A stretch of 64,000 nucleotides of DNA from Kibdelosporangium persicum (GTDB lineage: Bacteria; Actinomycetota; Actinomycetes; Mycobacteriales; Pseudonocardiaceae): contig NZ_JAAATY010000037.1 in NCBI RefSeq assembly GCF_013280595.1, positions 1-64,000 of the forward strand, written 5' to 3'. A program made the position numbers and the translations under genes. Shown piece by piece: positions 18,862 through 36,290 of the stretch. Within the stretch, counting starts at the first letter, position 1; every line of letters begins with the position of its first letter. Under the pieces are notes generated by a model. That model was given only the letters and a program-made list of their open reading frames with translations. It did not search any database and had not been told where the DNA came from.

Positions 18862-19281
18862 GTGCAGCTGGAGATGTTGCAGGCCAAGATCCACCGCGCC
18901 ACCGTGACCCGGGCGGACTTGCACTACGTCGGTTCGCTGACCCTCGACGCGGACCTGATCGCCGCGGCCGGGCTGCTGCCAGGGCAGAAGGTGGACGTCG
19001 TCGACATCGACAACGGCGCCCGCCTGTCGACGTATGTCATCGAAGGACCGGCCGGAACCGGGACAGTGGGCATCAACGGCGCGGCGGCACGCCTGATCAG
19101 TCCGGGTGACCTCGTGATCGTCATCGCCTACGCGCAGATGTCCGAGCAAGAGGCACGCGAGTTCGTGCCGTCCATTGTGTTCGTCGACAAACACAACCGT
19201 GTTGTCAAGCAAGGCAATGACCCGGGTGAACCATTGCCGGGCCTCGTGCACGGCTCGACTCCGGCTGCGGGTACCTCGTGA
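18862..19281 (+). CDS. panD: Aspartate 1-decarboxylase (pyruvoyl-dependent)
   Basis: The 139-residue protein converts L-aspartate to beta-alanine and CO2. It has the family start (LQAKIHRATVTRADLHYVGS), the Gly-Ser self-cleavage site in YVGSLTLD that generates the pyruvoyl group, and the NGAAARL core segment. GTG 18862 is chosen because it gives the usual PanD N-terminus just before LQAKIHRATV; earlier in-frame codons overlap the synthetase end. Its stop overlaps the next start (GTGA). PanD normally serves pantothenate synthesis. Here, 7 bases after an NRPS and coupled to amino-acid-tailoring genes, it more probably supplies beta-alanine to the peptide or raises phosphopantetheine supply. Which of these applies cannot be told from the sequence. 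Confidence 0.93.
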   Translation: MQLEMLQAKIHRATVTRADLHYVGSLTLDADLIAAAGLLPGQKVDVVDIDNGARLSTYVIEGPAGTGTVGINGAAARLISPGDLVIVIAYAQMSEQEAREFVPSIVFVDKHNRVVKQGNDPGEPLPGLVHGSTPAAGTS

Positions 19282-22934: not shown

Positions 22935-23809
22935 CGACCGAACACCCGACGATGGCCCGGACAGGCGTGGGTTCGGCGTTCGGCACCTTCGGTGAGCTTC
23001 TACAGGGTGTACTGCCCGAACCCGACGGCGACTTCTTGGTCACCCTGCCGATCACGCTCGGTTCCACGGCGACGTTCGAGCCCGGCCGGGGTGATCTGCG
23101 AGTGCGTCCGGCCGGGAAACAGAAGTCCGCCACGCTGGCCCGGCTGATCCTGGACTGGGCCGGCCTTCCGGCCGGCGGCCGGTTGACCATCGACAGTGAG
23201 CTGCCGGAAGGCAAAGGGCTGGCCAGCTCGTCCGCCGACCTGGTGGCCAGCGCCAGGGCGATCAGCGACGCGCTGGGGATCGAGCTCTCCACCGCGCGGA
23301 TCGAGGCGTTCCTGCGGATCATCGAGCCGACGGACGGTGTGTTGTACCCAGAGGCCGTGGCATATCACCATCGCACCGCGCGCCTGCGTGCCCGACTTGG
23401 CGACCTGCCGCCGGTCACCATCATGGCGGTTGACGAGGGTGGTCAGGTCGACACGATTGCGTTCAATCGCCTGCCGAAGCCGTTCTCGCCTGGCGACAGG
23501 GCCGAGTACGCCACACTGCTCGACCGGCTCGGCACGGCTGTGCGAAACGGGGATCTGCGGACCATTGGACTGGTCGCCACCCGGAGCGCGGAGATGAACC
23601 AGCGAATTCGTCCAAAATCGACATTCGACGACATGGTCAAGACGTGCTCCGATATCGGCGGAGTCGGAATAGTCGTAGCGCACAGCGGCACGATGATCGG
23701 TGTCATGCTTGACGAATCCGAGCCCGGCTTCTGTGAGAAACACGGGGCGCTGCTGGAGTCGGCCGTAATGTGCGGAACCGCCCGGTTACGTTACCAGTCG
23801 CGCCGTTGA
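22931..23809 (+). CDS. GHMP-family L-threonine kinase (PduX-like)
   Basis: The 292-residue GHMP kinase has GTFGELLQG near residue 18, characteristic of the PduX threonine kinase branch, and the ATP-binding motif LPEGKGLASSSADLVAS near residues 95-111. PduX makes O-phospho-L-threonine for cobalamin synthesis, but no cobalamin gene is nearby. Here the kinase closes a coupled operon with a PLP beta-replacement enzyme and an argininosuccinate-lyase-like enzyme, so phosphothreonine as the activated precursor of 2,3-diaminobutyrate is the best reading. ATG 22931 overlaps the ATP-grasp stop. The 3' end faces a small ORF on the opposite strand. Confidence 0.85.
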   Translation: MTTEHPTMARTGVGSAFGTFGELLQGVLPEPDGDFLVTLPITLGSTATFEPGRGDLRVRPAGKQKSATLARLILDWAGLPAGGRLTIDSELPEGKGLASSSADLVASARAISDALGIELSTARIEAFLRIIEPTDGVLYPEAVAYHHRTARLRARLGDLPPVTIMAVDEGGQVDTIAFNRLPKPFSPGDRAEYATLLDRLGTAVRNGDLRTIGLVATRSAEMNQRIRPKSTFDDMVKTCSDIGGVGIVVAHSGTMIGVMLDESEPGFCEKHGALLESAVMCGTARLRYQSRR

Positions 23810-23953
23810 CTCATTGCGGTGCCGGGCAGTCACCACCGTGGCAGTGGTACGAGTCGAGCGGCTGCCGAGCTGAACCCGCGGAACCATCGCCAGCGCTAGC
23901 CCGGCCGTGAGCACCACGGCCAGAACCGCACGACAAGCTCGCTGTGGATGCAT
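23786..23953 (-). CDS. Possible 55-residue signal-anchored peptide
   Basis: This small minus-strand ORF has a very good ribosome site (GAGGAGGTGACGC before ATG 23953). The product begins MHPQRACRAVLAVVLTAG and continues hydrophobic to about residue 27, then becomes Ser/Thr/Arg-rich, like a signal anchor with a short polar tail. It overlaps the end of the kinase gene on the other strand by 24 bases. I do not recognise it. The strong SD and the hydrophobic N-terminus are the only support; it could be a chance ORF. Confidence 0.3.
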   Translation of the reverse strand: MHPQRACRAVLAVVLTAGLALAMVPRVQLGSRSTRTTATVVTARHRNESTARLVT

Positions 23954-24148
23954 GCGTCACCTCCTCGGTTCCGGCACCGTGGCGTCGCGGCTGGGGGGAT
24001 CAGTCTCCTGATTCCTGTAATCACACAGGCAGATTGTGGTGTGTCGCCGATCTGACATCGCTGGGGACCGGTCCCCTGTGCGGCTTCCTACCCTGTCGGT
24101 CGCGTCGTCCGAATCGGAGCAATTGCTCGTGGAGGGGAAGCGTCAACG

Positions 24149-24335
24149 GTGAAACGAATCGTGATGACCTTGCTCGGTACGGCGGCGGTGCCCAGGCGGA
24201 GTGGTCAAGGCGAAAGACGTCGTCGTTCTCGGCTGCGCCGCGGCCATCGACGGCTTCACCCTGGTCGGTGACGAACCGGACGATCCGTCGACGGGATCCA
24301 AGTTTCCGGTCCGGGTCGCCACATTCACGAAATGA
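24149..24335 (+). pseudogene. Degenerate or frameshifted small ORF
   Basis: GTG 24149 follows GGAGGGGAAG and opens as VKRIVMTLLGTAAV, like the start of a signal sequence, but this frame soon turns arginine-rich. From about 24201 the next frame over reads VVKAKDVVVLGC and ends FPVRVATFTK at 24335, with high GC3 codons. One indel near 24190-24200 would join the two into a roughly 60-residue secreted peptide with a single Cys. I do not recognise it. It may be a decayed gene or a sequencing error. Confidence 0.25.
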
Positions 24336-24423
24336 ACGTCGGCTGTCGGCGCTTGCGTCCGGCTGTTCGATGGTTCCGGGTTCGTCGAACGGGTTTCTCG
24401 TCCCCTTACACAAGGAATGGGTT

Positions 24424-26259
24424 ATGCTCGTGAGATCGACTACCGCGTTGAGTTTTGACGTGCTCGGGCCGGTGCGGGGCCACTACCGAGGACGGGCGAT
24501 CGAACTGGGGCCGGCCAGGCAGAGTGCTCTGCTTGGCGTGATGTTGACTCGTCCCAATATGGCACTCTCGTCCGACGAGTTGTTGCACTGGGTGTGGGGC
24601 GACCAGGTGCCGAAAAGCACGCACAAGGTGATTCCGACCTACATCTACCGGCTACGTCAGGCGCTTCAGATGGCTGGTGACGAGGCGGTGATCGAGCGGG
24701 TCCGCAACGGCTATGCGCTGCGGATCGAGGCGGATGCCGTGGACGCCGCGCGTTTTGCCCGGGCCACCGAGTCGATGAATGCGACCAGGATGATGTCGTC
24801 CGATGACCAGTACGGTCACGTGGCGAGTGTGCTGGAGATGTGGCGTGGCGAACCGTTCGAAGGGCTGCCAGGTCCGGCGTTGGCCAGTGAACGCGCGAAG
24901 CTGCACGAAATGCGGCTGACACTACTGATGCGTCGAGCTGGTCTCGACATAGTCAGCGGCAACCACGCAGCGGCTGTGCTCGACCTGTTGGACCTGCAGG
25001 AACGAAACCCGATGCACGAACAAGTCGCTTGCTTGTTGATGACCGCCCTGTACCAAAGCGGCAGGCAGGCCGAGTCACTCGCCGTCTACTCGAAGATCCG
25101 GCTCCGGCTGCTGCACGAACTGGGCAGCGAACCAGGTAGGGCACTGGTCACGACGCATCGGGCTGTGCTGACCGGCGACCAGGATGCCCTCGACAGGATT
25201 TGTGGGTGTCCGATGACCGCGGCGCCTGGGAAGACCGTGACGGAGGTACCGGTCCACACACCTCGTTGTGATCTGCCGGGTGAGGCCGGGCTGCTGCTGG
25301 GCAGGGATTTCGAACTGGCCGCGCTTGCCGGTGCGATCCGGGCGGGCCGGGGAAGTCGTCAGGTGATCGCCGTGGACGGCATGCCCGGGATCGGAAAAAC
25401 CGCGTTCGCGCTGCGGCTGGCGCGTATGGTCGCCACCGACTATCCGGACGGGCAGCTTTACGTGGATCTTCGCGGTCACAGCACACAGCAGCCACCGTTG
25501 TCCACTTCAGACGCTTTGTGGTCGTTGCTCGCAAGCGTGGGAGTGCCTCCTGCCCGACCCATTGGCGACGTCGAACAGGCGGCGGCGTTGCTGCGGGCGA
25601 CGATCGCGGACCGTCGGCTGCTCATCCTGCTCGACGATGTGATCGGAACGGACCAGATTCTGCCCTTGCTGCCAGGCGGAGCCGCATCGGCTGTGTTGGC
25701 CGTGAGCCGGAACAAGCTACTGGCCCTGCCGGCGACCCGCACTCTGTCGCTGTATCCCCTGGAACAGCAGGATTCACGAGCTTTGCTCGGCAGCCATATC
25801 GGACCGGAGAGGCTCGCCGCCGACGAAGAGGGGGTCACCCAGCTGGTCCAGGCGTGTGCGGGTCACCCGTTGGCGTTGGCCCTCGTTGGGGCGAGACTGC
25901 GGCACAGGCCGATGATCAGCGCGAGCACGTTGGCGCGACACCTGGTGAGCGCGCCCGATGGATTCCTCGGCTTACGAGCGGAATCGGCGAGCCTGCTCGC
26001 GAATCTCGAGCCGTCGCTGTCCCGGCTCGACGCGGAAGCGCACAAGGTACTGGGCGCATGCGCGGTGGCCGATCGGCTGAGCGCGACCCGGAACGTGCTC
26101 GCCTCCCGGCTGGACATGGGCGTCGGCGCAGTCGAGGCCTCTCTGGACCAGCTTGTCGACCGCAACTTGCTGATGCAGGTGGGCACAGACCAGTTTCGGC
26201 TCCATCCGGTCGTCGCCGGGTGCGTGCGCGCGTTGCTTCCATCAGCGAACTCGCCCTGA
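24424..26259 (+). CDS. SARP-family transcriptional activator with NB-ARC ATPase domain
   Basis: The 611-residue regulator has an OmpR-type winged helix at residues 1-100 (FDVLGPVRG, SSDELLHWVWGDQVP, VIPTYIYRLRQAL), a bacterial transcriptional activation domain to about 255, then an NB-ARC ATPase (Walker A GMPGIGKTAFALRLAR near 319, Walker B RRLLILLDDV near 399) and a C-terminal winged-helix-like region. The same frame is open 480 bases further upstream, but ATG 24424 gives a proper SARP N-terminus and follows ACAAGGA, so it is preferred. It lies 615 bases after the biosynthetic operon on the same strand and is the likely pathway activator of the NRPS genes. Confidence 0.92.
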   Translation: MLVRSTTALSFDVLGPVRGHYRGRAIELGPARQSALLGVMLTRPNMALSSDELLHWVWGDQVPKSTHKVIPTYIYRLRQALQMAGDEAVIERVRNGYALRIEADAVDAARFARATESMNATRMMSSDDQYGHVASVLEMWRGEPFEGLPGPALASERAKLHEMRLTLLMRRAGLDIVSGNHAAAVLDLLDLQERNPMHEQVACLLMTALYQSGRQAESLAVYSKIRLRLLHELGSEPGRALVTTHRAVLTGDQDALDRICGCPMTAAPGKTVTEVPVHTPRCDLPGEAGLLLGRDFELAALAGAIRAGRGSRQVIAVDGMPGIGKTAFALRLARMVATDYPDGQLYVDLRGHSTQQPPLSTSDALWSLLASVGVPPARPIGDVEQAAALLRATIADRRLLILLDDVIGTDQILPLLPGGAASAVLAVSRNKLLALPATRTLSLYPLEQQDSRALLGSHIGPERLAADEEGVTQLVQACAGHPLALALVGARLRHRPMISASTLARHLVSAPDGFLGLRAESASLLANLEPSLSRLDAEAHKVLGACAVADRLSATRNVLASRLDMGVGAVEASLDQLVDRNLLMQVGTDQFRLHPVVAGCVRALLPSANSP

Positions 26260-26494
26260 CAGTGGCCGTCGAAAAGTGCATGCGCCACCACGTCGTGATG
26301 CCATGTGAAACCAGAGCAGACGCGGCGCTTGGCCTGACCGCTCGCCGCCGATGGTCACGGCGGCATTGTGGGGCTTCGGGACAACCATTGCGTCAACTCT
26401 GGCCGTGACTCGTGCTCGCCGGCCCGGCTTTCGTGCCGGGCAGTGAAATTCCGCTCGGTGTGGTGGTCGGAGTTCCGGCGTCGGAGGATTGTGA

Positions 26495-28285
26495 ATGACA
26501 GATGTGTTCATCGGGGTCCTTGGCGAGCTGCACGTGCGCGTCGGCGGCCGTGAAATGCGAATTGCCGGCAGGAAGCAGCAACTTCTGCTGACCGCGCTGG
26601 CGCTGAGCAGCGGTGCGGTCGTCACCGTCGAGGAGCTGATCGACCGGCTCTGGGACGACAACCCACCGCCGTCGGCACGGTCAACGCTACGGGGACACGT
26701 GAAGCGGCTAAGGCGGCTACTGCGCGTACCGGGCGGCCAGCCCGTTGTCGAAACCGCGAACGGCGGTTACCGGCTGCGGGTCGATCCTGAAGCCATTGAC
26801 CTGTATCGCTTCCGCCGGCTCATCGGTCAAACCGATGCGCCGAAAGCCGTGCTGGCCGAGGCAATCGACCTGTGGCGCGGCCCCGCGCTGCACGGTCTCG
26901 GCCCGAGCCGGTGGGCCGAGCAGACAGCGTTGGGGCTCGAGGAAGAGTGGTTGCAGGCTATCGAACGGCTCAGTGACCTCGACATCGACACCGGGGCACC
27001 GGAACCGGCGACCGCGCGCCTTGGCCACCTGCTGGGTGATCACCCTTTTCGGGAGAGCTTGTGGTACCGGTTCATCCTTGCCCTGCACAGGGCTGGACGT
27101 GGCGCCGAGGCGCTGAACCGGTTCGACGAGATCCGGCGCCACTTGGCCGACCGTCTCGGCGTCGAACCGTCCGCTCCGCTGCGAGATCTGCACCAGGAGA
27201 TTCTGGCCTCCACACAGGACAGGCAGACCTCGGTGAAACCCAGGCCCGGTCCCACCGAGTTCGTCGGCAGGAAGAAGGAGATCGCTCGCCTTGACGAGCT
27301 GTCCGAGCGCGCACGGATCATCGTTGTCGACGGGGGAGCAGGGGTGGGCAAGTCGGAGTTGGTGTCGCGTTGGGCAGACGTCGCGTCGGCACGTTTCGGC
27401 GACAAGGTCGTGCGGATCAATCTCCGTGGATTTCATCCCGAGCCTCCACTGTCCACGAACGAGGCGCTCGTCGAACTACTGTGCGGACTCGGGGTGGCCG
27501 CTGACGATGTGCCAGCCGACGTCCCGGCCAGAACAGCGCTCCTGCGTGCCGAGCTGTCGCGGACCCGTACACTGGTCATATTGGACAACGCTTTGAACGG
27601 CCACCAGGTACGGCCACTGCTGGGCGGTTCTGAGAGCCTGACCATCATCACCAGCCGCGGGCAACTACGCGGCCTCGTGGCCAGAGAAGGCGCCTGTCGG
27701 CTGACGGTATGCCCGCTTGATCTGAGCGAGAGCAGGCAACTCGTCACAGCCCTCGTTGGCCGTCCAATGCGGACCGAAGAACTGGCCCTGGTTGATGAGC
27801 TCGCCGAGCTCTGCGCAGGGATGCCCCTGGCATTGCGGATCGCCATCGAGAAGTTGACACGGATACCTGAGATGAGCCTGGTCAGGCTGGTCGGCGAACT
27901 GTGTGACGTGAACGGCCGGCTGGATCTGCTGGAGACGGGGGACGACTGTACAACGAGTGTCCGTGCCGTGCTGAGCCGGTCACAGCGCCTGCTCTGCGCG
28001 AGCGAAGTGAACCTGCTGCACCGGCTTTCCTGCCTACGGAAGTCCGTTTTCGATGTCAACGATGTGATGTTGCTGGCCGATGTCCCGCCAAGAGAAGCGC
28101 GCGCGACGCTGAACAAGTTGGTATCGCTTGGTTTTCTCGAACAGCGAGGGTTGCAGACCTATCGGATGCATGCGCTGCAGCGTGCGGTGGCGCAGGAAAC
28201 TCCCGGAACAGTGTCTGTCGACGGAGTGCAGCAACCCAGTCCCGCGACTCGTCGTCCGCTCGCCTCAGTCCAGCTGGACCGCTGA
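26495..28285 (+). CDS. SARP-family transcriptional activator with NB-ARC ATPase domain
   Basis: This second SARP regulator has 596 residues: an N-terminal winged helix (IGVLGELHVRVGG, VTVEELIDRLWDDNPP, LRGHVKRLRRLL), a BTAD region to about 240, and an NB-ARC domain (Walker A DGGAGVGKSELVSRW near residue 279, Walker B TLVILDNAL near 360). ATG 26495 follows TCGGAGG. The upstream SARP is 235 bases away; that gap holds no convincing gene. Its 3' end overlaps by 21 bases the end of the convergent lasso ABC transporter. It could serve the NRPS cluster or the neighbouring lasso operon; position does not decide. Confidence 0.92.
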   Translation: MTDVFIGVLGELHVRVGGREMRIAGRKQQLLLTALALSSGAVVTVEELIDRLWDDNPPPSARSTLRGHVKRLRRLLRVPGGQPVVETANGGYRLRVDPEAIDLYRFRRLIGQTDAPKAVLAEAIDLWRGPALHGLGPSRWAEQTALGLEEEWLQAIERLSDLDIDTGAPEPATARLGHLLGDHPFRESLWYRFILALHRAGRGAEALNRFDEIRRHLADRLGVEPSAPLRDLHQEILASTQDRQTSVKPRPGPTEFVGRKKEIARLDELSERARIIVVDGGAGVGKSELVSRWADVASARFGDKVVRINLRGFHPEPPLSTNEALVELLCGLGVAADDVPADVPARTALLRAELSRTRTLVILDNALNGHQVRPLLGGSESLTIITSRGQLRGLVAREGACRLTVCPLDLSESRQLVTALVGRPMRTEELALVDELAELCAGMPLALRIAIEKLTRIPEMSLVRLVGELCDVNGRLDLLETGDDCTTSVRAVLSRSQRLLCASEVNLLHRLSCLRKSVFDVNDVMLLADVPPREARATLNKLVSLGFLEQRGLQTYRMHALQRAVAQETPGTVSVDGVQQPSPATRRPLASVQLDR

Positions 28286-30010
28286 GTTGTCGACGGCTTG
28301 CCAATGGCCAACCAGATTTGTGTATGTGGCAGAGCTCGTGCACAGCTGTGCGTGGGTGCCGACTTGCGGGCGAGCTCCGTCCAGTACGAGCACACGATCG
28401 GCGCGCAACGCGGACGTGATGCGGTGGGCGATCACGATCAGAGTGCCTTCACGGTCCGCCAACGCACTTTCGGCGATGGCCTCCACGCTGGGATCGAGGT
28501 GGCATGTGGCTTCGTCCAGGATGACAATCCGGGCGGGCGAAACGAACACCCGGGCCAGCACCAGCAGCTGTCGTTCTCCTGGCGAAAGCGCCCCGGGTCG
28601 CTCGATCCTCGCACCGAGCCCACCCAGGCGATCAACGAGTTCCTTCGCCCCCACAGCGGTCACGGCTGTCCACAAAGTGGCGTCGTCAACCGCGGTGTTC
28701 AGATACGCCAGGTTCTCGCGGACCGTGCCGGCACACACATAAGCTTCCTGTGGGACCAGCGCGACGTTTTCACGCAGCACCGATTCCGCGAGATCACCGA
28801 GTGGCCGTCCACCGATCCGGACGACGCCCGTCTCCGGTTCGCACAGCCCGGTCAGCAGGCCGGCCATCGTGGACTTGCCGATCCCGCTCGGACCGACGAT
28901 CGCCAGGTGCTCACCTGCCGGGATCCTCAGGGTGAACCGGTCGAGAATCGGACGGGAATGCTCGCCGTAGCGGAAGCTGATCCCCTCCATGTCCACGTCG
29001 GCACTGAGCCGCTCGACTGGTCCGCGGTTGTCTTCAGATGCCCGTGGAGGGCGCGTGTGGGCCGCCAGCCTGCCGAGCAACACCGACATCTCCAAGCCCA
29101 AGTTGCCGACAGCCTCGACGAGTGTGCGCACCGCCGGCTCGAGTCCGACGACCAGGTAGGTGGCGGCACCCAGCAGTGCCCCCGCGGACATCAGACCGGA
29201 CGAGACCAGCCACGGTGCGAGAATCAGCAGTGCCAGTAGCGGGATGCGCGCCGCCACGGCGAACGCGGCGATTCGGGCGGTTCCGGCGGTCGCCACTCGA
29301 GCGTCAGCTTCAGCGTTGGCGACGAACACCTGATCGAGCTCAGCGACCGCACGATCACCGGCTGCGCAACTCAGCGCGTCGCGCAACCCTTCAACCGTGC
29401 GCCCAGCACGCCGGGCAAGGCGTTCCTCCACTACCAACGTGTATTCGTACCGCCTTCGCCACAGTCGGGACATGGGCACCAGCACGGCGGCGCCCAGCAC
29501 CATACAAAGCACCGATAAGACGACGATCGCGGGCGCGAGCGAAGCCAGGCCGATCACGCACGCACCAACGCTGAACACGACGAGGCGAGCCACCATCAGC
29601 AGGCTCGCGCCGAGCTGGCGGACGGACTCTGCCTGCAGGACGAGCCGCGCGACTGTACTGGAGTCAGCCCGGTGAGGTCGTTCAACCGCCTCCTGTAGGG
29701 CGCTGCCAACCACCGCGCGCACTATGTCGTCCCGCAGGGATTCCACCACGTGCCCGGTCGACGTGACGGCCTGCCTTCCCGCGAAAGCACCAACGACCAA
29801 CGAAACCCCATAGCAGCCCAGCAACATCAGGCCGGTTCCTGGCGCGGAAACCATGAATCCACGGTCAAGCGCGGACGCGACCAGCCAGCCCGACAGCGAG
29901 ATCGGCAGGACCTCAACGACCGACCACCCGGCCAGCACCAAGAGCTGCCGTCGATGTCTGCCGAGCACCGGCAGGACGAAAAGCCGCCAGCCACCTTTCG
30001 GGCTCAGCAT
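28265..30010 (-). CDS. ABC exporter half-transporter (permease-ATPase), lasso peptide export
   Basis: The 581-residue type I exporter subunit has an N-terminal membrane domain (about residues 10-300) fused to an ATPase: Walker A GPSGIGKSTMAG, signature LSPGERQLLVLAR, Walker B IVILDEATCHLD with the catalytic Glu, and H-loop VIAHRI. Its start overlaps the end of the upstream half-transporter by 7 bases, so the two are translationally coupled and probably form a heterodimer. As last gene of the lasso operon it should export the mature peptides and give self-protection. The 3' end overlaps the convergent SARP gene. Confidence 0.92.
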   Translation of the reverse strand: MLSPKGGWRLFVLPVLGRHRRQLLVLAGWSVVEVLPISLSGWLVASALDRGFMVSAPGTGLMLLGCYGVSLVVGAFAGRQAVTSTGHVVESLRDDIVRAVVGSALQEAVERPHRADSSTVARLVLQAESVRQLGASLLMVARLVVFSVGACVIGLASLAPAIVVLSVLCMVLGAAVLVPMSRLWRRRYEYTLVVEERLARRAGRTVEGLRDALSCAAGDRAVAELDQVFVANAEADARVATAGTARIAAFAVAARIPLLALLILAPWLVSSGLMSAGALLGAATYLVVGLEPAVRTLVEAVGNLGLEMSVLLGRLAAHTRPPRASEDNRGPVERLSADVDMEGISFRYGEHSRPILDRFTLRIPAGEHLAIVGPSGIGKSTMAGLLTGLCEPETGVVRIGGRPLGDLAESVLRENVALVPQEAYVCAGTVRENLAYLNTAVDDATLWTAVTAVGAKELVDRLGGLGARIERPGALSPGERQLLVLARVFVSPARIVILDEATCHLDPSVEAIAESALADREGTLIVIAHRITSALRADRVLVLDGARPQVGTHAQLCTSSATYTNLVGHWQAVDNSAVQLD

Positions 30011-31698
30011 GTGCTCTCCGCTGGCTCAGCACGGAACAACGCGCGGTAGTTCGGATCGGCGAGCAATTGGTGATGTGGTGCCACGGCGCGGGCCCGTCCG
30101 GCTTCCATCCAACACACGACGTCAGCTCGCGCGGCGACAGACATGCGATGTGCGATCAGGATGCGGGTCGTATGACTCTTGCCGTGCGCCAGAGCGGCGG
30201 TGATCTCGGCCTCAGTAGCGGTGTCCACACTGGACATAGCATCGTCGAGGACGAGCACACGCACGTCACGGCAGAGTGCTCGGGCCAAGCCGAGCCGTTG
30301 CGTTTCGCCACCCGACAACCGCAGTGCCTCGACCTCGGTGTGTGCGCCTTCCGGTAAACGAGCCACGAACTCCGCCGCGGCCCCGGCCCGCAGCGCCGCG
30401 TCCACACGGCCCTCATCGGCCGGTCTGTCCGCGTATCCGACCGCCTCGGCGATGGTGGCCCCAAGCAGGACGGGGCGTTCGAAGCCGTATCCGAAGGCCG
30501 CGCGCAGGGACTTCGGCTTCACCTCGCACAAAGGAACTCCGTCCAGCAAGATCGTACCTTCGTCGGGCGGAATCAATCCACCCACGACGGCCGCCAGGGT
30601 GGACTTTCCCGATCCGGAGGAGCCTACGATCGCGATCGACGTTCCGGCGGCCACGTCGAGGTCAAGCCCGTTGACGATGTCCCGGTCGCCGGCCCGGACC
30701 CGGATTCCGCGCAACCGGAGCTCACCACGGCCTGGCGGCAGGTCAAGCCGGCCCGGAGGTGGCACGGGCAATGCCAGCAGTTCCGCGATCCGATCGGCGG
30801 AGCCCTTCGCGCGGGCGAGCCGTCCGATCGCCGCGACCTGGCGCAACAAGCCCATCGCATAACCGAGATAGCCCACCACGGACAGCATCTCGCCGGGCGT
30901 GATGCGCTGACTCGTGACACCGAGCCCGGCTACTGCCAACGCGAGCACTTGCGCGATCGGACCGAACAGTCCCAACTGCCAGCACGCGCGGCGTTGCATC
31001 GCCCAGAAGCCGGCACCCGCCGCTCGCAACCTGTCGAGCGGCTTCAGCACTCGGCCGAGTTCCCAGTCGAAGGTACCGGCGGCGCGGATGGTGCGTGCGC
31101 CACCCACCGCGTTCGTCAGACCGGCGACGAGTTCCTCGTGTGCTTGTTGGTAGTTCTTCGTGGTACCGGCCATTCGCGTGACCAGCCAGCGCATCAGCAG
31201 CCAGACCACCAACGCGGCTGCGACAGCCAACAGACCGATCGGGATGTCGATCAGGAACAACGCCACCACGGCGCCGATGGAGACGAGCAAGGAGGTCACC
31301 AGGGTGACCGCGACCGACGTAACCGTTGCGGCTTCCGTACTCGACTCCAAAAGCCGTGTCAACGCTCCCGCGTCGCCGATCCTGGATCTGGCCGAGATCC
31401 CGACGTCGAAGAGGTGCCGGAGCATCCTGCGCCGCAACGAAAGTGCGCCAGCGGCCTTGGCGCGGACGTCAGCGGCCTCACGCAGCATTTCCGCTGCCGT
31501 GGCGAGCAGTACAAGGGCACACACAGCGAGCACGGGCGCCGTTGACGTAGTCCCGCCCAGGGCGGCGTCGACGGCGAGTCCTATGGTCATCGGCAAGGCC
31601 AGCCGTACGGCAGCATCCACAAGGGCGACCGCGAACAACGACACAGCCCAGCGACCCGCCGCCCGGACCGCGCCGGCCAGCAGACGAATGCTTGACAC
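30004..31698 (-). CDS. ABC exporter half-transporter (permease-ATPase), lasso peptide export
   Basis: This 564-residue exporter subunit has a membrane domain followed by an ATPase: Walker A GSSGSGKSTLAAVVG, signature LSGGETQRLGLARAL, Walker B VLVLDDAMSSVD and H-loop LIAHRM. The usual catalytic Glu after Walker B is Asp, whereas the partner half has DE, so one nucleotide site is probably degenerate, as in asymmetric heterodimeric exporters. GTG 31698 (product MSSIRLLAGAVRAAG) is preferred over the ATG at 31755 because GGGAG precedes it and the longer version would begin within the hairpin at 31721-31753. It lies 98 bases after lasso precursor A2. Confidence 0.9.
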   Translation of the reverse strand: MSSIRLLAGAVRAAGRWAVSLFAVALVDAAVRLALPMTIGLAVDAALGGTTSTAPVLAVCALVLLATAAEMLREAADVRAKAAGALSLRRRMLRHLFDVGISARSRIGDAGALTRLLESSTEAATVTSVAVTLVTSLLVSIGAVVALFLIDIPIGLLAVAAALVVWLLMRWLVTRMAGTTKNYQQAHEELVAGLTNAVGGARTIRAAGTFDWELGRVLKPLDRLRAAGAGFWAMQRRACWQLGLFGPIAQVLALAVAGLGVTSQRITPGEMLSVVGYLGYAMGLLRQVAAIGRLARAKGSADRIAELLALPVPPPGRLDLPPGRGELRLRGIRVRAGDRDIVNGLDLDVAAGTSIAIVGSSGSGKSTLAAVVGGLIPPDEGTILLDGVPLCEVKPKSLRAAFGYGFERPVLLGATIAEAVGYADRPADEGRVDAALRAGAAAEFVARLPEGAHTEVEALRLSGGETQRLGLARALCRDVRVLVLDDAMSSVDTATEAEITAALAHGKSHTTRILIAHRMSVAARADVVCWMEAGRARAVAPHHQLLADPNYRALFRAEPAESTC

Positions 31699-31720
31699 CG
31701 CGACTCCCTGCGCACGATTG

Positions 31721-31753
31721 GTGTGGCCGGTGGCCACAGGCCACCGGCCACAC
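31721..31753 (-). terminator. Perfect 15-bp hairpin between lasso precursors and transporter genes
   Basis: GTGTGGCCGGTGGCC at 31721-31735 and GGCCACCGGCCACAC at 31739-31753 are exact reverse complements with a 3-base loop. On the minus-strand transcript this very stable stem lies 43 bases after the stop of precursor A2 and 22 bases before the transporter start. No U-tract follows, so a processing or mRNA-protecting element, or a partial terminator that makes more precursor than transporter mRNA, fits better than a full intrinsic terminator. Confidence 0.7.
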
Positions 31754-31796
31754 AAGACAAGAGCGATGACGTCGTGCGGTCACACGACGACTGGGA

Positions 31797-31919
31797 TCAC
31801 TCCCACGTGTCGTACAGCCACACGATCTCGTCGCCGTTGCGAACGCCGACCCTGCCGGTCTCTTCGGCGAAACCGCCCAGCTCGAACACGGCCGGAGGCT
31901 CGTAGTTCTCCTTGTTCAC
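31797..31919 (-). CDS. Lasso peptide precursor A2
   Basis: The 40-residue precursor begins at GTG 31919, with AGGAG five bases upstream. The leader is MNKENYEPPAVFELGG followed by FAEETG. It has the YxxP element (YEPP) bound by the RRE protein and Thr at the second-last position of the leader. The predicted core is RVGVRNGDEIVWLYDTWE: Arg1 would close an isopeptide ring on Asp8 or Glu9, leaving a 9-10-residue tail rich in bulky residues (Trp12, Tyr14, Trp17) able to act as plugs. The cut after TG follows the pattern of fusilassin (leader end EATG). My calculated monoisotopic mass of the cyclised core is about 2188.07 Da. The gene is too short for ordinary gene calling. It duplicates A1, lying 355 bases away. 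Confidence 0.88.
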   Translation of the reverse strand: MNKENYEPPAVFELGGFAEETGRVGVRNGDEIVWLYDTWE

Positions 31920-31939
31920 CACATCTCCTTTCTCAAGGG

Positions 31940-31961
31940 GCGACCGGCGGACGCCGGTCGC
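31940..31961 (-). promoter_or_regulatory. 5' UTR hairpin before lasso precursor A2
   Basis: On the minus strand GCGACCGGCG, two bases, then CGCCGGTCGC form a perfect 10-bp stem about 20 bases upstream of the precursor start, just before the AAAGGAG ribosome site. The equivalent stem before A1 is kept through G-U pairs, which argues that it matters in RNA. Confidence 0.5.
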
Positions 31962-32151
31962 GCTCACCACTGCACATGGCTTTGGTGCCCACGTTCTTCC
32001 CCGGACATCGAGTGCCAGGGGCCGTTGTGAATCGGGGAATGAACTCGATCGCCAACCGCTAGGTGGCGACGAATTCGGCGTGGCGTGGCCAGCGGCGCAT
32101 CAGCCACAGTGGACGAACGTGGCGCGTCGTGCGGTCATACGACGATGGGGA

Positions 32152-32274
32152 TCACTCCCACGTGTCGAACATCCACACGTTCTCATCCCAGTTGCGAATG
32201 CCGTACCTGCCGGTTTCCTCGGCGAAACCGCCCAGCTCGAACACGGCCGGAGGTTCGTAGATCTCCTTGTTCAC
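32152..32274 (-). CDS. Lasso peptide precursor A1
   Basis: This 40-residue precursor begins at GTG 32274, with AGGAG five bases upstream; a second GTG directly before is badly spaced. The leader MNKEIYEPPAVFELGG then FAEETG differs from A2 at one residue and has the YEPP element and Thr at position -2. The predicted core RYGIRNWDENVWMFDTWE has Asp8 and Glu9 as ring acceptors and Trp12, Phe14, Trp17 in the tail. Calculated monoisotopic mass of the cyclised core is about 2398.06 Da. It follows B2 by 243 bases. If the leader ended one residue earlier, the core would begin with Gly and be 57.02 Da heavier, but Thr would then be the last leader residue, against the family rule. Confidence 0.9.
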   Translation of the reverse strand: MNKEIYEPPAVFELGGFAEETGRYGIRNWDENVWMFDTWE

Positions 32275-32293
32275 CACATCTCCTTTCTCAAGG

Positions 32294-32315
32294 GCAACCG
32301 ACGGACGCCGGTCGC
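32294..32315 (-). promoter_or_regulatory. 5' UTR hairpin before lasso precursor A1
   Basis: The minus-strand sequence GCGACCGGCG, two bases, CGTCGGTTGC folds into the same 10-bp stem as before A2, with two G-U pairs replacing G-C pairs. Position relative to the ribosome site is the same within one base. Confidence 0.45.
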
Positions 32316-32397
32316 GCTCACCACGGCATGTGGTTTCGATGCCGCGTGCCTTCGCCGGTCCGATGCGAACCGGAAATGAGGCCGGTCGCCGACCACG

Positions 32398-32519
32398 AGG
32401 TCGTGTTTCGAATGTCCCGGTCGATGAGAGTCTGCCCCGGCCGGAGGCCGGAGTCGGCTCGGTGGCGCCAGGGGCCGCATCCGGCCCGGCTATCGCGATC
32501 GGGCATTAGAACACGACCT
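32398..32519. repeat. Inverted repeat pair between B2 and precursor A1
   Basis: AGGTCGTGTTTCGAATG at 32398-32414 and CATTAGAACACGACCT at 32504-32519 are near-perfect inverted repeats 89 bases apart; one arm includes part of the B2 stop codon. They could form a long-range RNA stem at the end of B2 or be the ends of a tiny MITE-like insertion. No target-site duplication is evident. Confidence 0.4.
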
Positions 32520-32928
32520 AAGCGGCGACTTCAGTCAGTTTGATGTAGACGGTTTGGTCGGCGAACTCGCCGACCATCATTCCGTCAGCCTCCACCCAGG
32601 CGTGGGCCGTGAACGGGGGAGCAGCAAGAACTCCGACGCACCAAGCAGCCCAACTGCCACGCAGCCTGCACAGCAGCACAGTCGCCAGCGACCGCGGCAG
32701 GCATGCGTTGCCTCCGCAGCACCGTGTGCTGACGACAAGCACCGAGTTGCGGGCCGCTCTGGCCTCCTCGAACGTAGCCGGGCGGCAGTTCGCGCTCAGC
32801 TTCCTGAGCACATGCGCGATCTTCTTGGGACTCCGCTTCGCGAGCAGTCTCGCGACCCCCACGACGGCACGGACCAGCACTTGGTCGGCGACGGAGACTT
32901 TCGCGTCAGCATCCGGAAGAATCGGCAT
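32518..32928 (-). CDS. Lasso peptide leader peptidase (B2, transglutaminase-like)
   Basis: The 136-residue protein is the B2 type of lasso maturation enzyme, a transglutaminase-fold cysteine protease that removes the leader. The catalytic Cys76 lies in GGNACLPRSLA and His109 in TAHAWVE, with acidic residues E113/D115 just after. Length and motif order fit the family. Its start overlaps the B1 stop (TGATG), so the two are translationally coupled, as expected for a split B protein whose parts work together with the precursor. Confidence 0.93.
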   Translation of the reverse strand: MPILPDADAKVSVADQVLVRAVVGVARLLAKRSPKKIAHVLRKLSANCRPATFEEARAARNSVLVVSTRCCGGNACLPRSLATVLLCRLRGSWAAWCVGVLAAPPFTAHAWVEADGMMVGEFADQTVYIKLTEVAA

Positions 32929-33182
32929 CAGCCCACCACGACGCCGTTTGCCCGCAACTGCGTCAGCAACCGTGACACATCCCGGCGAGCGACCTCGGGC
33001 GTCACGTCGAACCGCGCGGCGAGGGCAGTGGCCGCCCCGGCCACGTCCTGCCCTTCGCTCAGCGAGGCCAGTATCACCTCGGCGGTCTTGTTGAGCTGCC
33101 AGTACTTTCCGGTCACTTGGTGTAACAGGACGACGCCGTACTCCGTCTTCGCCATCGAAACGTCCTCGTGCAAGCGGGTCAT
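32928..33182 (-). CDS. Lasso peptide RRE protein (B1, PqqD-like)
   Basis: This 84-residue protein is a stand-alone RiPP recognition element of the PqqD fold. It binds the precursor leader and presents it to B2 and the cyclase. Recognisable features are the beta-strand segment YGVVLLHQVTGKYWQLNKTAEVIL and the helical C-terminus with ARRDVSRLLTQLRANGVV. ATG 33182 is chosen because it overlaps the cyclase stop (ATGA); a second ATG at 33155 (MAKTEYG) is possible. It should recognise the YEPP element in both precursors. Confidence 0.9.
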   Translation of the reverse strand: MTRLHEDVSMAKTEYGVVLLHQVTGKYWQLNKTAEVILASLSEGQDVAGAATALAARFDVTPEVARRDVSRLLTQLRANGVVVG

Positions 33183-34993
33183 GGTGTGATCCGTTCCCTC
33201 ACTCCCGACTGGTTGCGTGCGAACACCGCGCCGTTCAGGGTGGTGTCCAGATCGCGGTTGATCGCCCCGGGTCCTTGTGGAAAGGCGTGTTCGGCCAGCA
33301 GCCGCAGGTCGATGATGCCGAGACCGGCCAACGGGGACTGCCCGCACAAAGCCAGGAGATCCTCCTTGTACCGTTCGATGCCGCGGGTGGCCTGCGTGGT
33401 GCCCGAGTTCTTTCTGCTGCGCGTGAGGAACTCGTCCGGCAGCCGGCCACGCATCGCCTCGCGCATCAATGGCTTGAACGCCTTGGGCTCGGCCCGTTCC
33501 TCACGTCGAACCGACAGCACCGCCTCTGCCACGCGGTCGTCGGAGATCGGTGCCTGGAAAGCCAGCCCGAGCTCGGCGCCGAGCTGTTCGCCGCCGCGCG
33601 TACTGCGTGCACCGTGGCGGATCATGCTGATTTCTCCGTGCGAAGCCAGGTCCGGGCCCAGCGGCTCGACGTCCTCGCACACCTTCCTTATCCGCTCGAC
33701 GATCGCCGCGCGGATATCGGCCGTGTACCAGCGGGGCCACGACAAGGGGGCATCCCAGTCGAGGCTCAACGTGGGTTTGGTCTTCTCGTCACGTTCGCCG
33801 ATTCGTTCGAGGTTGTCCACAAGCCACTGCCGGTACCCGCGCCGGTCGAACAGCTTGACGAAGGTCGCTCGGGCCGGCAGGCGTTCAAGTAGTTGGTACG
33901 CGCGCAGTCTGCGTAACGCCAAAAGCGGTCGACGTCGGAACAACGTGTGCTCGGCACGTGGGTGGCCGAACAGCAGCTCATCACCACCCAGCCCAGTGAG
34001 GTACACCCTCGCACCGAGTTCCTTGGCTTGCTGCATCATGTACCGCATGCGAGGCCCGGCACGGAACGTATCCGACGGATCGTCCAGCTGGGCGTCCATC
34101 TCGAGCAATCCGTCGTAGAACTGCGGCATCTCGTCAGTGGAGAAAACACTGTGGTGCGCCACGTCAATCGTCCTGAGCGCGCGCCGTGCCCAGATCAGGT
34201 CCTCGCCACCACCTGGATCGTTGTTGTATGCCGTGCCGACGAGTAGCCGCGCCGGACCGCGCGCCGCGAAGTACGCCTGGGGCGTGGAATCGAAACCACC
34301 GGAAAGATCGGCGTACACGACATCGCTGCTCCGCGTCCGGGTCGACACTGCCTCCTCAAGGGCACGGCACAACCTTGCTGCGCCCTCGGTACGAGACAGC
34401 ACAGGCTCGGGAGGGCGCCACCAACGTGCGACCCTCACCCGGGAACCGTCCAGGATGGCGTAATGATCGGCGGGAACCGGCCGAACGCCCTGCCAGACAG
34501 GCAGTTCGCCCAAAGGATGGGGGATCTGGCGCAGCATCCTGATGGCGAGCGCAGTCTCGTCTATCGCGAACCCACCCAGATGTGCGAGCACATCTGCCCG
34601 ATCACAAGTTACTTCGCAGCCGTCGACGATGGCCGTGAACACTCGTCGCACGCCGCTGGCCGTGCCCTGCACCCGTACATGGCCACCGACTGAACCCACG
34701 AGAATGTGGCTTCCTGCCAGCGTGCCGGCCAGCGTGTCGAGGTCGGATACCTGTGTGCAGTTGTCCGCGGCACGCTGAAGGGCTTCCGTGGTGGCGGACG
34801 AGAACCCTATCACCGCCACTCGGTTCGGACCGGCGGTGTTGACCAAGACCTGCTCTGTGGGATAGGTGTGGATCACCCAGGGCCGCCCGGACGCGTGGCT
34901 CAGCACTGTACCCACTGACAGCCGCTCAGCGACTAGGCGGCCGCGGTCGCTGTCCGGCAGTGCCAATACGTACCATCCCCGATGAGCCCGCAC
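33179..34993 (-). CDS. Lasso cyclase (C protein, asparagine synthetase-like)
   Basis: The 604-residue protein adenylates the ring Asp/Glu side chain of the cleaved core and closes the isopeptide bond with the N-terminal amine. It resembles asparagine synthetase B: an N-terminal glutaminase-like domain that does not begin with the nucleophilic Cys (MRAHRGWYVLAL), and a synthetase domain with the pyrophosphate loop YADLSGGFDSTPQAY near residue 250. GTG 34993 is preferred because GAGGAGAAC precedes it; the frame is open further upstream without a good start. It is the first gene of the lasso operon, so the operon promoter probably lies at about 35000-35200. Confidence 0.92.
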   Translation of the reverse strand: MRAHRGWYVLALPDSDRGRLVAERLSVGTVLSHASGRPWVIHTYPTEQVLVNTAGPNRVAVIGFSSATTEALQRAADNCTQVSDLDTLAGTLAGSHILVGSVGGHVRVQGTASGVRRVFTAIVDGCEVTCDRADVLAHLGGFAIDETALAIRMLRQIPHPLGELPVWQGVRPVPADHYAILDGSRVRVARWWRPPEPVLSRTEGAARLCRALEEAVSTRTRSSDVVYADLSGGFDSTPQAYFAARGPARLLVGTAYNNDPGGGEDLIWARRALRTIDVAHHSVFSTDEMPQFYDGLLEMDAQLDDPSDTFRAGPRMRYMMQQAKELGARVYLTGLGGDELLFGHPRAEHTLFRRRPLLALRRLRAYQLLERLPARATFVKLFDRRGYRQWLVDNLERIGERDEKTKPTLSLDWDAPLSWPRWYTADIRAAIVERIRKVCEDVEPLGPDLASHGEISMIRHGARSTRGGEQLGAELGLAFQAPISDDRVAEAVLSVRREERAEPKAFKPLMREAMRGRLPDEFLTRSRKNSGTTQATRGIERYKEDLLALCGQSPLAGLGIIDLRLLAEHAFPQGPGAINRDLDTTLNGAVFARNQSGVRERITP

Positions 34994-35220
34994 GACGTTC
35001 TCCTCATGAGTTCCCGATCCAGGGGCGCCACTTGTTCTGCGGCGGCACAGCCAACGATGCCAACGATCCGTGGCACCTGAGTTGTCCCAATGTGGCGCTG
35101 TTGTGGCGTCGCCGTGGTACGCCGCCGGGGCCTCGATGCATCGCACGAGCCGCTACCACCGGATCCGTCGAAGCACGCGATGAGCTGCGACCGAGGGGGC
35201 CCGGGCATCATCACCCGCAG

Positions 35221-35310
35221 GCCATCCGCCGCGGCACGTTCACGTCGGTCAAAGTCCTCATCGGACAGATTCGCGACCACGTCGACCACTGGGACGCCAA
35301 CGCCAAGCCC
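35221..35310 (+). pseudogene. Remnant of an IS630-family transposase
   Basis: Thirty codons read AIRRGTFTSVKVLIGQIRD then HVDHWDANAKP, closely resembling the C-terminal part of IS630-type DDE transposases from actinomycetes as I remember them. Nothing before or after in frame belongs to a transposase. It is a short relic in the 382-base gap between the lasso cyclase and the dehydratase gene; I see no other gene in that gap. Confidence 0.55.
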
Positions 35311-35375
35311 TCAGTCCGCACGGCCCTCACGGGATTGATCATTCGCGCCGGTCTGGGCGGCACTAGCGTCAGCCG

Positions 35376-36290
35376 CTACGAGTTGGCGCCGCTGATGAGC
35401 ACGGTGATGCGCTCTCCCGGCAGGTCCCGGGCGTGGTGGAGGGCGGCGGCGAACGCGGTGGCGCCGCCGGGTTCGGCGGCGATCCGCAGGTTGTCCCACA
35501 GTTGCCGCTGCGCCCGGCGGATCGCCTGATCGGGAGCGAGCAGGACCTGGGAGCGCTGGTCCAGCGCGACGGCGGTGGCGATGGCACCGGCCCGGCGGGC
35601 GCCGAGGCTGTCGACGGCGACTCCGGTCCGGTCGACATCGATGTCGACCGGCCGGCCCGCGGCGATCGCCGAAGCCAGCGAGGGGGCGGTTTCGGGTTCC
35701 GCCGCGATGACCTTGTTGCGGCCGCGCAGGGCGAGGCTGACACCGGCGAACAGGCCCCCTCCGCCGCAACCCACGATGACGACGTCGCCGACCGGGATCT
35801 GCTCGGCCAGCTCGCTGCCGACGGTGGACTGCCCCGCCACGGTGGCGACCTCGTCGTAAGCGTCGACGTGCACCACTTCGTGGTCGGCCGCGTACTGCCG
35901 GCTGGCCTGCAGGGCGTCGGCGTAGAAACCGTCGACGAGGTGCAGGTCCGCGCCGTACCGGCGGATGGCGTCCTGTTTGACCTGAGGGGAGAAGGAGGGG
36001 ACGAAGATCGTGGCGTGGACGCCGGCCTGGTGGGCGGCCCAGGCCACCGCCGCTCCGTGGTTTCCGCCGGAGGCGGCGGTGACGGAGGTCGCCCCGGCAG
36101 GGATGGTCAGCACGGCGTTCAACGCGCCTCGGGCTTTGAACGAGCCGGTGTGCTGCAACTGCTCCAGCTTCAGCGTCAGCGCGCCGGGGAAACCCACGTC
36201 CCGGCCGTCGATGTGCAGAATCGGGGTGCGGCGGACGCGGTCGCGCAGGCGGACGCGGGCCTGGGCCAGGTCTTCGTCGGTGGGGATCAC
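35376..36290 (-). CDS. Serine/threonine dehydratase-like PLP enzyme
   Basis: This 304-residue fold-type II PLP enzyme has TGSFKARGA (about residues 47-55) with the PLP lysine, ASGGNHGAAVAWAA (about 74-87) binding the substrate carboxylate, and VGCGGGGLFAG (about 171-181) binding the PLP phosphate. Family members deaminate serine or threonine to the 2-oxo acid; some are racemases, which the sequence cannot exclude. There is no C-terminal ACT domain, so it is probably the catabolic, non-allosteric type. GTG 36290 is chosen; the longer frame runs into the truncated nitrilase. The two overlap by 4 bases (GTGA). Confidence 0.85.
   Translation of the reverse strand: MIPTDEDLAQARVRLRDRVRRTPILHIDGRDVGFPGALTLKLEQLQHTGSFKARGALNAVLTIPAGATSVTAASGGNHGAAVAWAAHQAGVHATIFVPSFSPQVKQDAIRRYGADLHLVDGFYADALQASRQYAADHEVVHVDAYDEVATVAGQSTVGSELAEQIPVGDVVIVGCGGGGLFAGVSLALRGRNKVIAAEPETAPSLASAIAAGRPVDIDVDRTGVAVDSLGARRAGAIATAVALDQRSQVLLAPDQAIRRAQRQLWDNLRIAAEPGGATAFAAALHHARDLPGERITVLISGANS

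What the first reader, a model, noticed from the sequence alone, without database searches (positions are those of the whole stretch)
31797..32274. Two hidden lasso peptide precursors with 18-residue cores
Two 40-codon genes on the minus strand, both starting with GTG, encode near-identical leaders with YEPP and a Thr at -2 and cores RYGIRNWDENVWMFDTWE and RVGVRNGDEIVWLYDTWE. Both begin with Arg instead of the usual Gly, offer Asp8/Glu9 as ring acceptors, and share the tail end DTWE. All maturation genes are next to them. I do not recall a described lasso peptide with these cores.
Basis: partly seen in the sequence, partly recalled or inferred. Interest (0 to 1): 0.85.

Follow-up and report, generated by a model that had tools for sequence, protein, structure and literature searches.

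The report
Twin Arg-first lasso peptide precursors
An actinobacterium carries a complete set of genes for making two closely related knotted ("lasso") peptides predicted to start with arginine instead of the usual glycine; it looks like an undescribed member of a known class of natural product, with relatives in other actinobacteria.

Summary
Two 40-residue precursors (32152-32274 and 31797-31919, minus strand) both pass the curated cut-off for a lasso leader. They lie in a row: cyclase, RRE protein, leader peptidase, A1, A2, two ABC transporter halves. Leaders fit the Y(-17), P(-14), T(-2) ruler, so Arg1 is the predicted first residue. The cyclases of ten different clusters, the window included, form a fully supported clade next to a fusilassin-like one; 8 of the 10 share the whole gene order. 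None of the 17 distinct cores of that clade starts with Gly, so "Arg instead of Gly" is ordinary there; Tyr1, Leu1 and Asn1 lasso peptides are published. The ring acceptor stays open: tail register in paralogues favours Glu9 (about 0.6), plain position counts and the ungapped match to Snou-LP favour Asp8. Stem-loops stand in front of the first precursor in 9 of 10 clusters; their use in control is inference. Verdict: real, uncharacterised, new member of a known kind.

The parts
33179..35146 (-). Lasso cyclase C (asparagine-synthetase-like); true start codon uncertain, the part conserved in relatives begins near residue 57
   Evidence: Pfam Asn_synthase 113.3 bits over cut-off 21; NCBIfam albusnodin/ikarugamycin-type macrolactam cyclase 206.9 bits, below its cut-off 300; S282 G283 G284 D286 S287 invariant in 9 aligned clade cyclases
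32928..33182 (-). B1, leader-binding RRE (PqqD-like) protein; overlaps the end of C by 4 nt if it starts at the ATG at 33182 (start inferred)
   Evidence: NCBIfam lasso_PqqD_Strm 95.4 bits over cut-off 70; Pfam PqqD 62.7 over 23.4, both scored on the longer frame 32928-33347; the shorter frame reads open
32518..32928 (-). B2, leader peptidase (transglutaminase-like cysteine protease)
   Evidence: NCBIfam lasso_biosyn_B2 100.1 bits over cut-off 33; Cys76 and His109 invariant in 12 aligned B2 proteins
32294..32315 (-). Stem-loop upstream of A1 (9 pairs incl. G-U, 4-nt loop), 19 nt before the GTG at 32274
   Evidence: coordinates read
32152..32274 (-). Precursor A1: leader MNKEIYEPPAVFELGGFAEETG, core RYGIRNWDENVWMFDTWE
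   Evidence: NCBIfam lasso_leader_L3 22.8 bits over cut-off 19; leader ruler met
31940..31961 (-). Stem-loop upstream of A2 (9 pairs, 4-nt loop), second copy of the same element
31797..31919 (-). Precursor A2: leader MNKENYEPPAVFELGGFAEETG, core RVGVRNGDEIVWLYDTWE
   Evidence: NCBIfam lasso_leader_L3 22.6 bits over cut-off 19; leader ruler met
31770..32358 (.). Tandem duplication that made A1 and A2: two copies about 355 nt apart, each with stem-loop, ribosome-binding site and precursor
   Evidence: 170-nt repeat at 91% and 67-nt repeat at 78%; gapped 236 nt at 87%
31721..31753 (-). Long perfect hairpin (15 pairs, loop TGT) between A2 and the first transporter gene, without a T-run; read by eye
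   Evidence: Sequence; not listed by the terminator scan; not compared with relatives
30004..31698 (-). ABC transporter half 1, membrane and ATPase domains (listed ORF reaches 31755; GTG at 31698 is the likelier start, inferred)
   Evidence: Pfam ABC_tran and ABC_membrane over cut-off (on the longer frame); homologue at the same place in 7 of 9 other clade clusters; GTG seen
28265..30010 (-). ABC transporter half 2, overlapping half 1 by a few bases
   Evidence: Pfam ABC_tran over cut-off, ABC_membrane below cut-off; homologue in the same 7 of 9 clusters

Best explanation
This is a class II (no cysteine) lasso peptide gene cluster with two precursor genes made by tandem duplication. B1 binds each leader through the YxxP region, B2 cuts after Thr-Gly to free an 18-residue core that starts with Arg1, and C activates an acidic side chain and joins it to the amino group of Arg1 around the threaded tail. 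The acceptor is more likely Glu9 (about 0.6) than Asp8 (about 0.4). Bulky tail residues (Trp12 to Phe/Tyr14, Trp17) would hold the thread. The paired ABC transporter exports the products and probably protects the producer. A stem-loop in front of each precursor probably raises or separates precursor output from enzyme output. Shown here: genes, families, leader ruler, homologues, duplication, stem-loops as sequence. Inferred: cleavage, cyclisation, threading, export, immunity, the use of the stem-loops. Target and role are not known; a narrow-spectrum antibacterial or a signal is the guess.
For: Leader of both precursors, B1 and B2 pass NCBIfam cut-offs, and the synthetase domain of C passes Pfam's. 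Y(-17), P(-14), T(-2) in 18 of 18 clade precursors and in 5 of 5 outside leaders checked (clade boundaries had been set by the Thr, so Tyr and Pro are the independent marks). The same boundary in citrulassin: one locus (L059, fetched again as L093) holds the core LLQSSGNDRLILSKN behind ...KKTG, and that core has a Leu1-Asp8 ring by MS/MS in PMC12971885 (passages). Cyclase clade of 11 rows, 10 different, support 100/100. Order C-B1-B2-A-ABC-ABC in the window and 7 of the other 9 clade clusters. Selection on a relative's core: L006 against L007, leader 5 residue-changing and 2 silent codons of 20, core 0 changing and 2 silent of 18. For Glu9: it aligns with the single Glu8 of seven paralogous or related cores when the tails are put in register (mean BLOSUM62 -0.08 against -1.07; 19 of 2000 tail shuffles reach that difference, 0 of 2000 that score; within one cluster 1.5 against -0.44 and 0.75 against -1.31).
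Against: No product has been seen and there are no expression data. The cyclase falls below both NCBIfam cyclase cut-offs. Against Glu9: position 8 is acidic in 16 of 17 distinct cores, position 9 in only 10 of 17; two L073 cores have Glu8 only; and Snou-LP, of the same length, matches the group best without a shift (0.275 against -0.1), its ring ending at residue 8 as I infer from a Y1-N9 digestion product (PMC5974421, passages). The register test was made after I had seen the pattern, and its cores are related, so its shuffle counts are not probabilities. No sigma-70-like promoter was found in 28000-35500 (0, with 0.5 expected), so operon structure is inferred.
Confidence: 0.87

Rival explanations
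1. Same lasso system, but B2 cuts one residue earlier, so the core starts with the usual Gly (a 19-mer GRYGIRNWDE...) and the ring closes at position 9 or 10.
For: Gly stands at -1 in both window leaders and in 17 of 18 clade leaders; the first residue of lasso peptides is given as Gly or Cys, rarely Ser or Ala, in PMC5974421 (passages).
Against: It would put Tyr at -16 and Thr at -1, against the ruler met by 23 of 23 leaders checked, among them those of Tyr1 Snou-LP and of a citrulassin-like precursor, which also end in Thr-Gly; citrulassin N starts with Leu1 by MS/MS.
Confidence: 0.06
2. Same system with an Arg1-Asp8 ring of eight residues and a ten-residue tail, rather than Arg1-Glu9.
For: Position 8 acidic in 16 of 17 distinct cores; Glu8 without an acid at 9 in seven cores of three clusters (L073, L075, L102); Snou-LP matches without a shift; citrulassin N closes at Asp8.
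Against: Tails fall in register only if the last Glu is equated; in that register Glu is present in 17 of 17 and the column of Asp8 is acidic in only 1 of the 7 shifted cores; L075c has Gln8 and Glu9.
Confidence: 0.37
3. A decayed or silent cluster: only one precursor, or none, is matured.
For: A2 core has diverged from A1 at 6 of 18 residues; the cluster is not found at this similarity in the 7 other genomes held of the genus (precursor: no match at E 0.01; next best cyclase 541 bits against 996).
Against: All frames open; both leaders, ribosome-binding sites and stem-loops kept; Glu9, Val11, Trp12, Asp15 and Trp17 kept in both cores.
Confidence: 0.07
4. Not a lasso system at all (chance small frames near a PqqD-like gene).
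For: Precursors are short and miss the Pfam cut-off.
Against: NCBIfam leader, B1 and B2 over cut-off; nine homologous clusters with related cores.
Confidence: 0.01

Closest known systems
Snou-LP (Streptomyces noursei lasso peptide, PMC5974421)
   Same: Leader ends Thr-Gly with the same ruler; 18-residue core; bulky first residue (Tyr1); Gly3, an aliphatic residue at 4, an acid at 8 and Asp15 in common with A1 and A2; no cysteine (sequence from section 5).
   Different: Gene order A-C-E-B and no transporter genes by the paper; here the precursors follow B2 and precede an ABC pair. First residue Tyr, not Arg. I did not look for its cluster record, so its cyclase was not compared.
Fusilassin/fuscanodin
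   Same: 18-residue core with Trp1 and Glu9 (recalled, not read here; the review PMC13352647 gives a native ring of nine, passages). A cluster whose core I take as fusilassin-like (L078) is the sister of the clade in the cyclase tree.
   Different: Cores differ outside the acceptor. In L078 (core YNAINKLEIIFIWPRLFN) the precursor precedes the cyclase and no ABC homologue shows at the threshold used. Fusilassin's own proteins were not compared.
Citrulassins
   Same: Leader type and Thr-Gly boundary; non-Gly start (Leu1).
   Different: 15-residue cores closing at Asp8; the citrulassin-like cyclase L011 is 38% identical and outside the clade.
Metanodin (PMC12670498)
   Same: Non-canonical first residue (Asn1), supported by MS/MS (section 9).
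   Different: Soil metagenome, different precursor; expressed and characterised by mass spectrometry, which this one is not.

Membership tests
Lasso peptides (RiPP class) | Precursor with lasso leader: YxxP motif and Thr at -2 | tested here: met
   both precursors
Lasso peptides (RiPP class) | RRE (B1) and transglutaminase-like peptidase (B2) genes | tested here: met
   Over NCBIfam cut-offs; Cys and His invariant in 12 B2 proteins (their catalytic role is recalled)
Lasso peptides (RiPP class) | Asparagine-synthetase-like cyclase | tested here: met
   Pfam Asn_synthase over cut-off; lasso-type NCBIfam models below cut-off; tree groups it with cyclases of other lasso clusters
Lasso peptides (RiPP class) | Asp or Glu at core position 7, 8 or 9 | tested here: met
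   Asp8 and Glu9 in both cores
Lasso peptides (RiPP class) | Isopeptide ring with threaded tail | not testable with these tools
   Needs MS/MS, carboxypeptidase or NMR
Class II lasso peptides | No disulfide (no cysteine in core) | tested here: met
   No Cys in either core
Citrulassin family | 15-residue core of the LLxxxGNDRLxxSKN type | tested here: not met
   Cores unlike
Fusilassin family | Cyclase in the same clade and a related core | tested here: inconclusive
   A fusilassin-like cluster (L078, so called from a recalled core) is sister, not member, of the clade; fusilassin's own proteins were not compared
Snou-LP type | Cyclase relationship and gene order | not tested
   Cyclase not compared, record not sought; gene order differs by the paper

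The most novel reading that the evidence does not exclude
A lasso clade whose synthetases do not ask for a particular first residue (Arg, Phe, Leu, Met, Val, Glu, Thr, Tyr, Ala, never Gly among 17 distinct cores) and natively close rings of eight and of nine residues on paralogous precursors in one cluster, keeping the tail in fixed register to the acceptor Glu, with precursor supply set by a stem-loop between the peptidase gene and the precursor.
Probability: 0.35. Interest if true: 0.5.

Novelty: new member of a known kind. Interest (0 to 1): 0.4.

Why it matters
Lasso peptides are compact, protease-resistant scaffolds, and engineering them depends on how much freedom the enzymes allow at the first residue and in ring size. 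A natural clade with no Gly1 among 17 distinct cores, in which one cyclase faces cores offering an acid at 8 only, at 9 only or at both, is a good source of permissive enzymes and gives a direct test of what sets ring size. The two window cores, which differ at six positions, are a ready natural pair for such a test. It does not by itself overturn anything known.

Tried and rejected
Rejected: Gly-first cleavage, because the leader ruler is met in 23 of 23 leaders with Arg1. Rejected: chance frames. Rejected: an ordinary terminator reading of the stem-loops, because the scan (7 terminator-like sites in 28000-35500, 3.7 expected) lists none at those places. Rejected: an Rfam family for 31600-32600; the five matches with E up to 1 are all below their gathering scores. 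Led nowhere: solved-structure search of the cyclase (0 sequences at E 1e-5); plasmid search (15 records, all under 60% identity, best 36%); precursor search in 35 genomes of one other family (0 of 35); literature searches on the first residue showed no Arg1 lasso peptide. The 'Arg1' hits in the lariocidin preprint that were shown are Arg17, and lariocidin starts with Ser1 (PMC11451635, passages). Not done: structure prediction, which cannot show an isopeptide-closed lasso here.

Limits: L103 dropped out of the tree because the frame extraction gave only 35 residues. L006 and L104 have identical cyclases and equal contig lengths and are probably one genome. L102 shows no transporter match and L008 a weak one. 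The register test was designed after seeing the pattern. In one search, 6 of 10 upstream stretches fold better than all but 10 of 200 shuffles; L007, L008, L074 (as L019) and the second L072 precursor do not. The eight hairpins given to one search were picked because they fold, so its pair counts lean towards the structure. The 15 control precursors were picked by hand from those. Regex hits that were plainly not precursors were set aside by eye, and for three precursors the boundary printed there was moved to the Thr-Gly by hand.

Full report
What is there. On the minus strand between 35146 and 28265 lies a row of seven genes: cyclase C (33179-35146), RRE protein B1 (32928-33182 by the likely start), peptidase B2 (32518-32928), precursors A1 (32152-32274) and A2 (31797-31919), and two ABC transporter halves (30004 to about 31698; 28265-30010). 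B1, B2 and both leaders pass NCBIfam's curated cut-offs for lasso families, and C passes Pfam's for asparagine synthase. C falls below the two NCBIfam macrolactam-cyclase models it matches, which fits a divergent clade. The own genome (10.35 Mb in 89 contigs) holds two further B2 matches over cut-off, on contigs C35 and C51.

Duplication. A1 and A2 lie in a tandem repeat: 236 nt at 87% identity with gaps, or 170 nt at 91% plus 67 nt at 78% ungapped, about 355 nt apart. Between the copies the leaders differ by 3 silent and 1 changing codon of 22, the cores by 1 silent and 6 changing of 18. The counts are small, but the change sits in the core. Between two Streptomyces relatives (L006, L007) the reverse holds: leader 2 silent and 5 changing of 20, core 2 silent and 0 changing of 18, which suggests selection to keep that core.

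Where the core begins. PMC10368454 (passages) gives Tyr(-17), Pro(-14), Leu(-12) and Thr(-2) as leader marks. With cleavage before Arg, Tyr, Pro and Thr are at those places in both window precursors, in all 18 clade precursors and in 5 outside leaders, 23 of 23; position -12 is Val in the window and varies. The clade boundaries had been set by the Thr, so Tyr and Pro are the independent part of this test. One locus (L059, fetched again as L093) holds the core of citrulassin N behind a leader ending Lys-Lys-Thr-Gly, and that product starts with Leu1 and closes at Asp8 by MS/MS (PMC12971885, passages). So Thr-Gly followed by a non-Gly residue 1 has an experimental precedent in this leader type. 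Snou-LP (Tyr1) is another (PMC5974421, section 5 and passages).

Relatives. One scan with the cyclase gave 7 loci from 34 candidate stretches. The first precursor alignment gave matches at E 0.01 or better in 46 of 390 genomes of the family, 13 of 397 of the order sample and 18 of 394 of the class sample, the own genome counted each time and the samples overlapping. Many of these cover the leader alone and belong to other lasso precursors. A wider alignment at E 1e-4 gave 19 of 297, 0 of 35 and 1 of 240 genomes of three further families, mostly citrulassin-like. Of 8 genomes of the genus only the own one has a precursor match at E 0.01; five of the 8 have cyclase matches at E 1e-60, the best outside the own genome at 541 bits against 996. 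The cyclase tree (16 rows, 15 different, L103 left out) joins the window with ten rows, 11 in all and 10 different, at support 100/100. Its nearest row is Actinokineospora pegani (97/96). L078, which I call fusilassin-like from a recalled core, is the sister of the clade and the citrulassin-like L011 lies further out; the root is a midpoint only.

Anatomy of the clade. In the window and 7 of the 9 other clusters (L005, L006, L007, L072-L075) the order is C-B1-B2-precursor(s)-ABC-ABC. L008 shows only weak transporter similarity and L102 none at the threshold used. Clusters hold one to three precursors. The 17 distinct cores begin with Arg 3, Phe 3, Leu 2, Met 2, Val 2, Glu 2, Thr 1, Tyr 1, Ala 1, and none with Gly. 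Among the six precursors first aligned, core Glu9, Val11, Asp15 and Trp17 are invariant; with twelve, of these only Glu9 stays, by an alignment that sets gaps in two cores.

Which acid closes the ring. Counting positions, 8 is acidic in 16 of 17 and 9 in 10 of 17, which favours 8. But the seven cores that lack an acid at 9 match the tails of the other ten better when shifted by one, so that their Glu8 meets Glu9: mean BLOSUM62 over core columns 10-17 is -0.08 with the shift and -1.07 without. Of 2000 tail shuffles 19 reach that difference and none reaches the shifted score. It holds when any one of the three clusters is left out and is strongest within one cluster (1.5 against -0.44 in L073; 0.75 against -1.31 in L075). 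In that register Glu is present in 17 of 17. The test was made after the pattern was seen and the cores are related, so I do not read the counts as probabilities. Against it, Snou-LP matches the group best without a shift (0.275 against -0.1), and its carboxypeptidase product Y1-N9 implies a ring of eight (my inference). Native synthetases that make rings of both eight and nine exist (caulosegnins, PMC13352647, passage). I put Glu9 at about 0.6. Mass does not distinguish the two.

Stem-loops. Folding the 61 nt upstream of ten clade precursors showed a stem of 7 to 10 pairs with a 4-nt loop in 8 of 10; 6 of the 10 stretches fold better than all but 10 of 200 shuffles. With a simple stem score in the 100 nt upstream, 13 of 18 clade precursors are reached by at most 10 of 200 shuffles, against 4 of 15 other lasso precursors picked as controls; for the first precursor behind B2 it is 9 of 10 clusters, L102 being the miss. 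Eight hairpins from seven clusters, chosen for their fold, share a core near GRCCGG/CCGGYC, of which CCG/CGG is invariant, and four of ten pairs show changes on both sides with pairing kept in at least one sequence. The stems found in L008, L075 and L102 have other sequences. The exact element GACCGG..CCGGTC occurs twice in the window (0.32 expected): once as the A2 stem and once inside the NRPS region, while the A1 stem does not fit it exactly, so this count says little. There is no T-run behind the stems. A further hairpin of 15 perfect pairs lies between A2 and the first transporter gene (31721-31753, read by eye), so the precursor stretch is framed by hairpins. I read them as RNA stabilising, processing or attenuating signals that let the precursors outnumber the other products; an inverted-repeat operator is the alternative. 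This is inference.

Transport and role. The two ABC halves are conserved in place and suggest a heterodimer that exports the products. McjD exports microcin J25 and gives self-immunity (PMC5641919, abstract start in the listing). The target here is unknown.

Novelty. Fragments of the window cores and of relatives' cores occur in no relevant open-access paper (two papers with a chance hit to one short fragment; none). Supplementary lists and subscription papers were not searched, so the cores may already stand in predicted-core tables. The word searches showed me no described Arg1 lasso peptide; they are no proof that none exists.

Noticed in passing
L003 1471-1605, L004 1432-1614 and L076 (own genome, contig C35): Second lasso cluster in the same genome with two precursors, cores WVCVGWVPDFFCTFGG (Trp1, two cysteines, Asp9: a possible one-disulfide lasso) and WVGGGRIPDLILTYIIDA.
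   Followed up: partly
L077 (own genome, contig C51, about 1000-3000): Third lasso-type B2/B1/C set in the same genome; its precursor was not looked for.
   Followed up: no
L026 1501-1614; L113 about 8877: In another genome of the family, a precursor whose core by the leader ruler would be RRGRWGRDRRWRRRWW, nine Arg and four Trp in 16 residues, with C, B1 and B2 before it and an ABC gene after it: an extremely cationic Arg1 lasso candidate.
   Followed up: partly
window 31940-31961 and 32294-32315: Stem-loops in front of both precursors; stems also stand in front of the first precursor in 9 of 10 clade clusters, with a shared GRCCGG/CCGGYC-like core in seven of the ten.
   Followed up: yes
window 31721-31753: Perfect 15-pair hairpin between A2 and the first ABC gene, no T-run.
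   Followed up: no
window 19-18854 and on to 23809: Large non-ribosomal peptide synthetase frames with methyltransferase-like parts, followed at 19278-23809 by cysteine-synthase-like, argininosuccinate-lyase-like, ATP-grasp-like and kinase-like frames (by eye).
   Followed up: no
window 23944-28285: Two SARP/AfsR-like regulator frames on the plus strand (by eye), the second ending just inside the end of the second ABC gene.
   Followed up: no
L061, L063, L067: Lasso-like leaders followed by very long Gly/Trp-rich cores (FIGFFGGWGWGGWGGHRHH...), about 40 residues, in another actinobacterial family.
   Followed up: no
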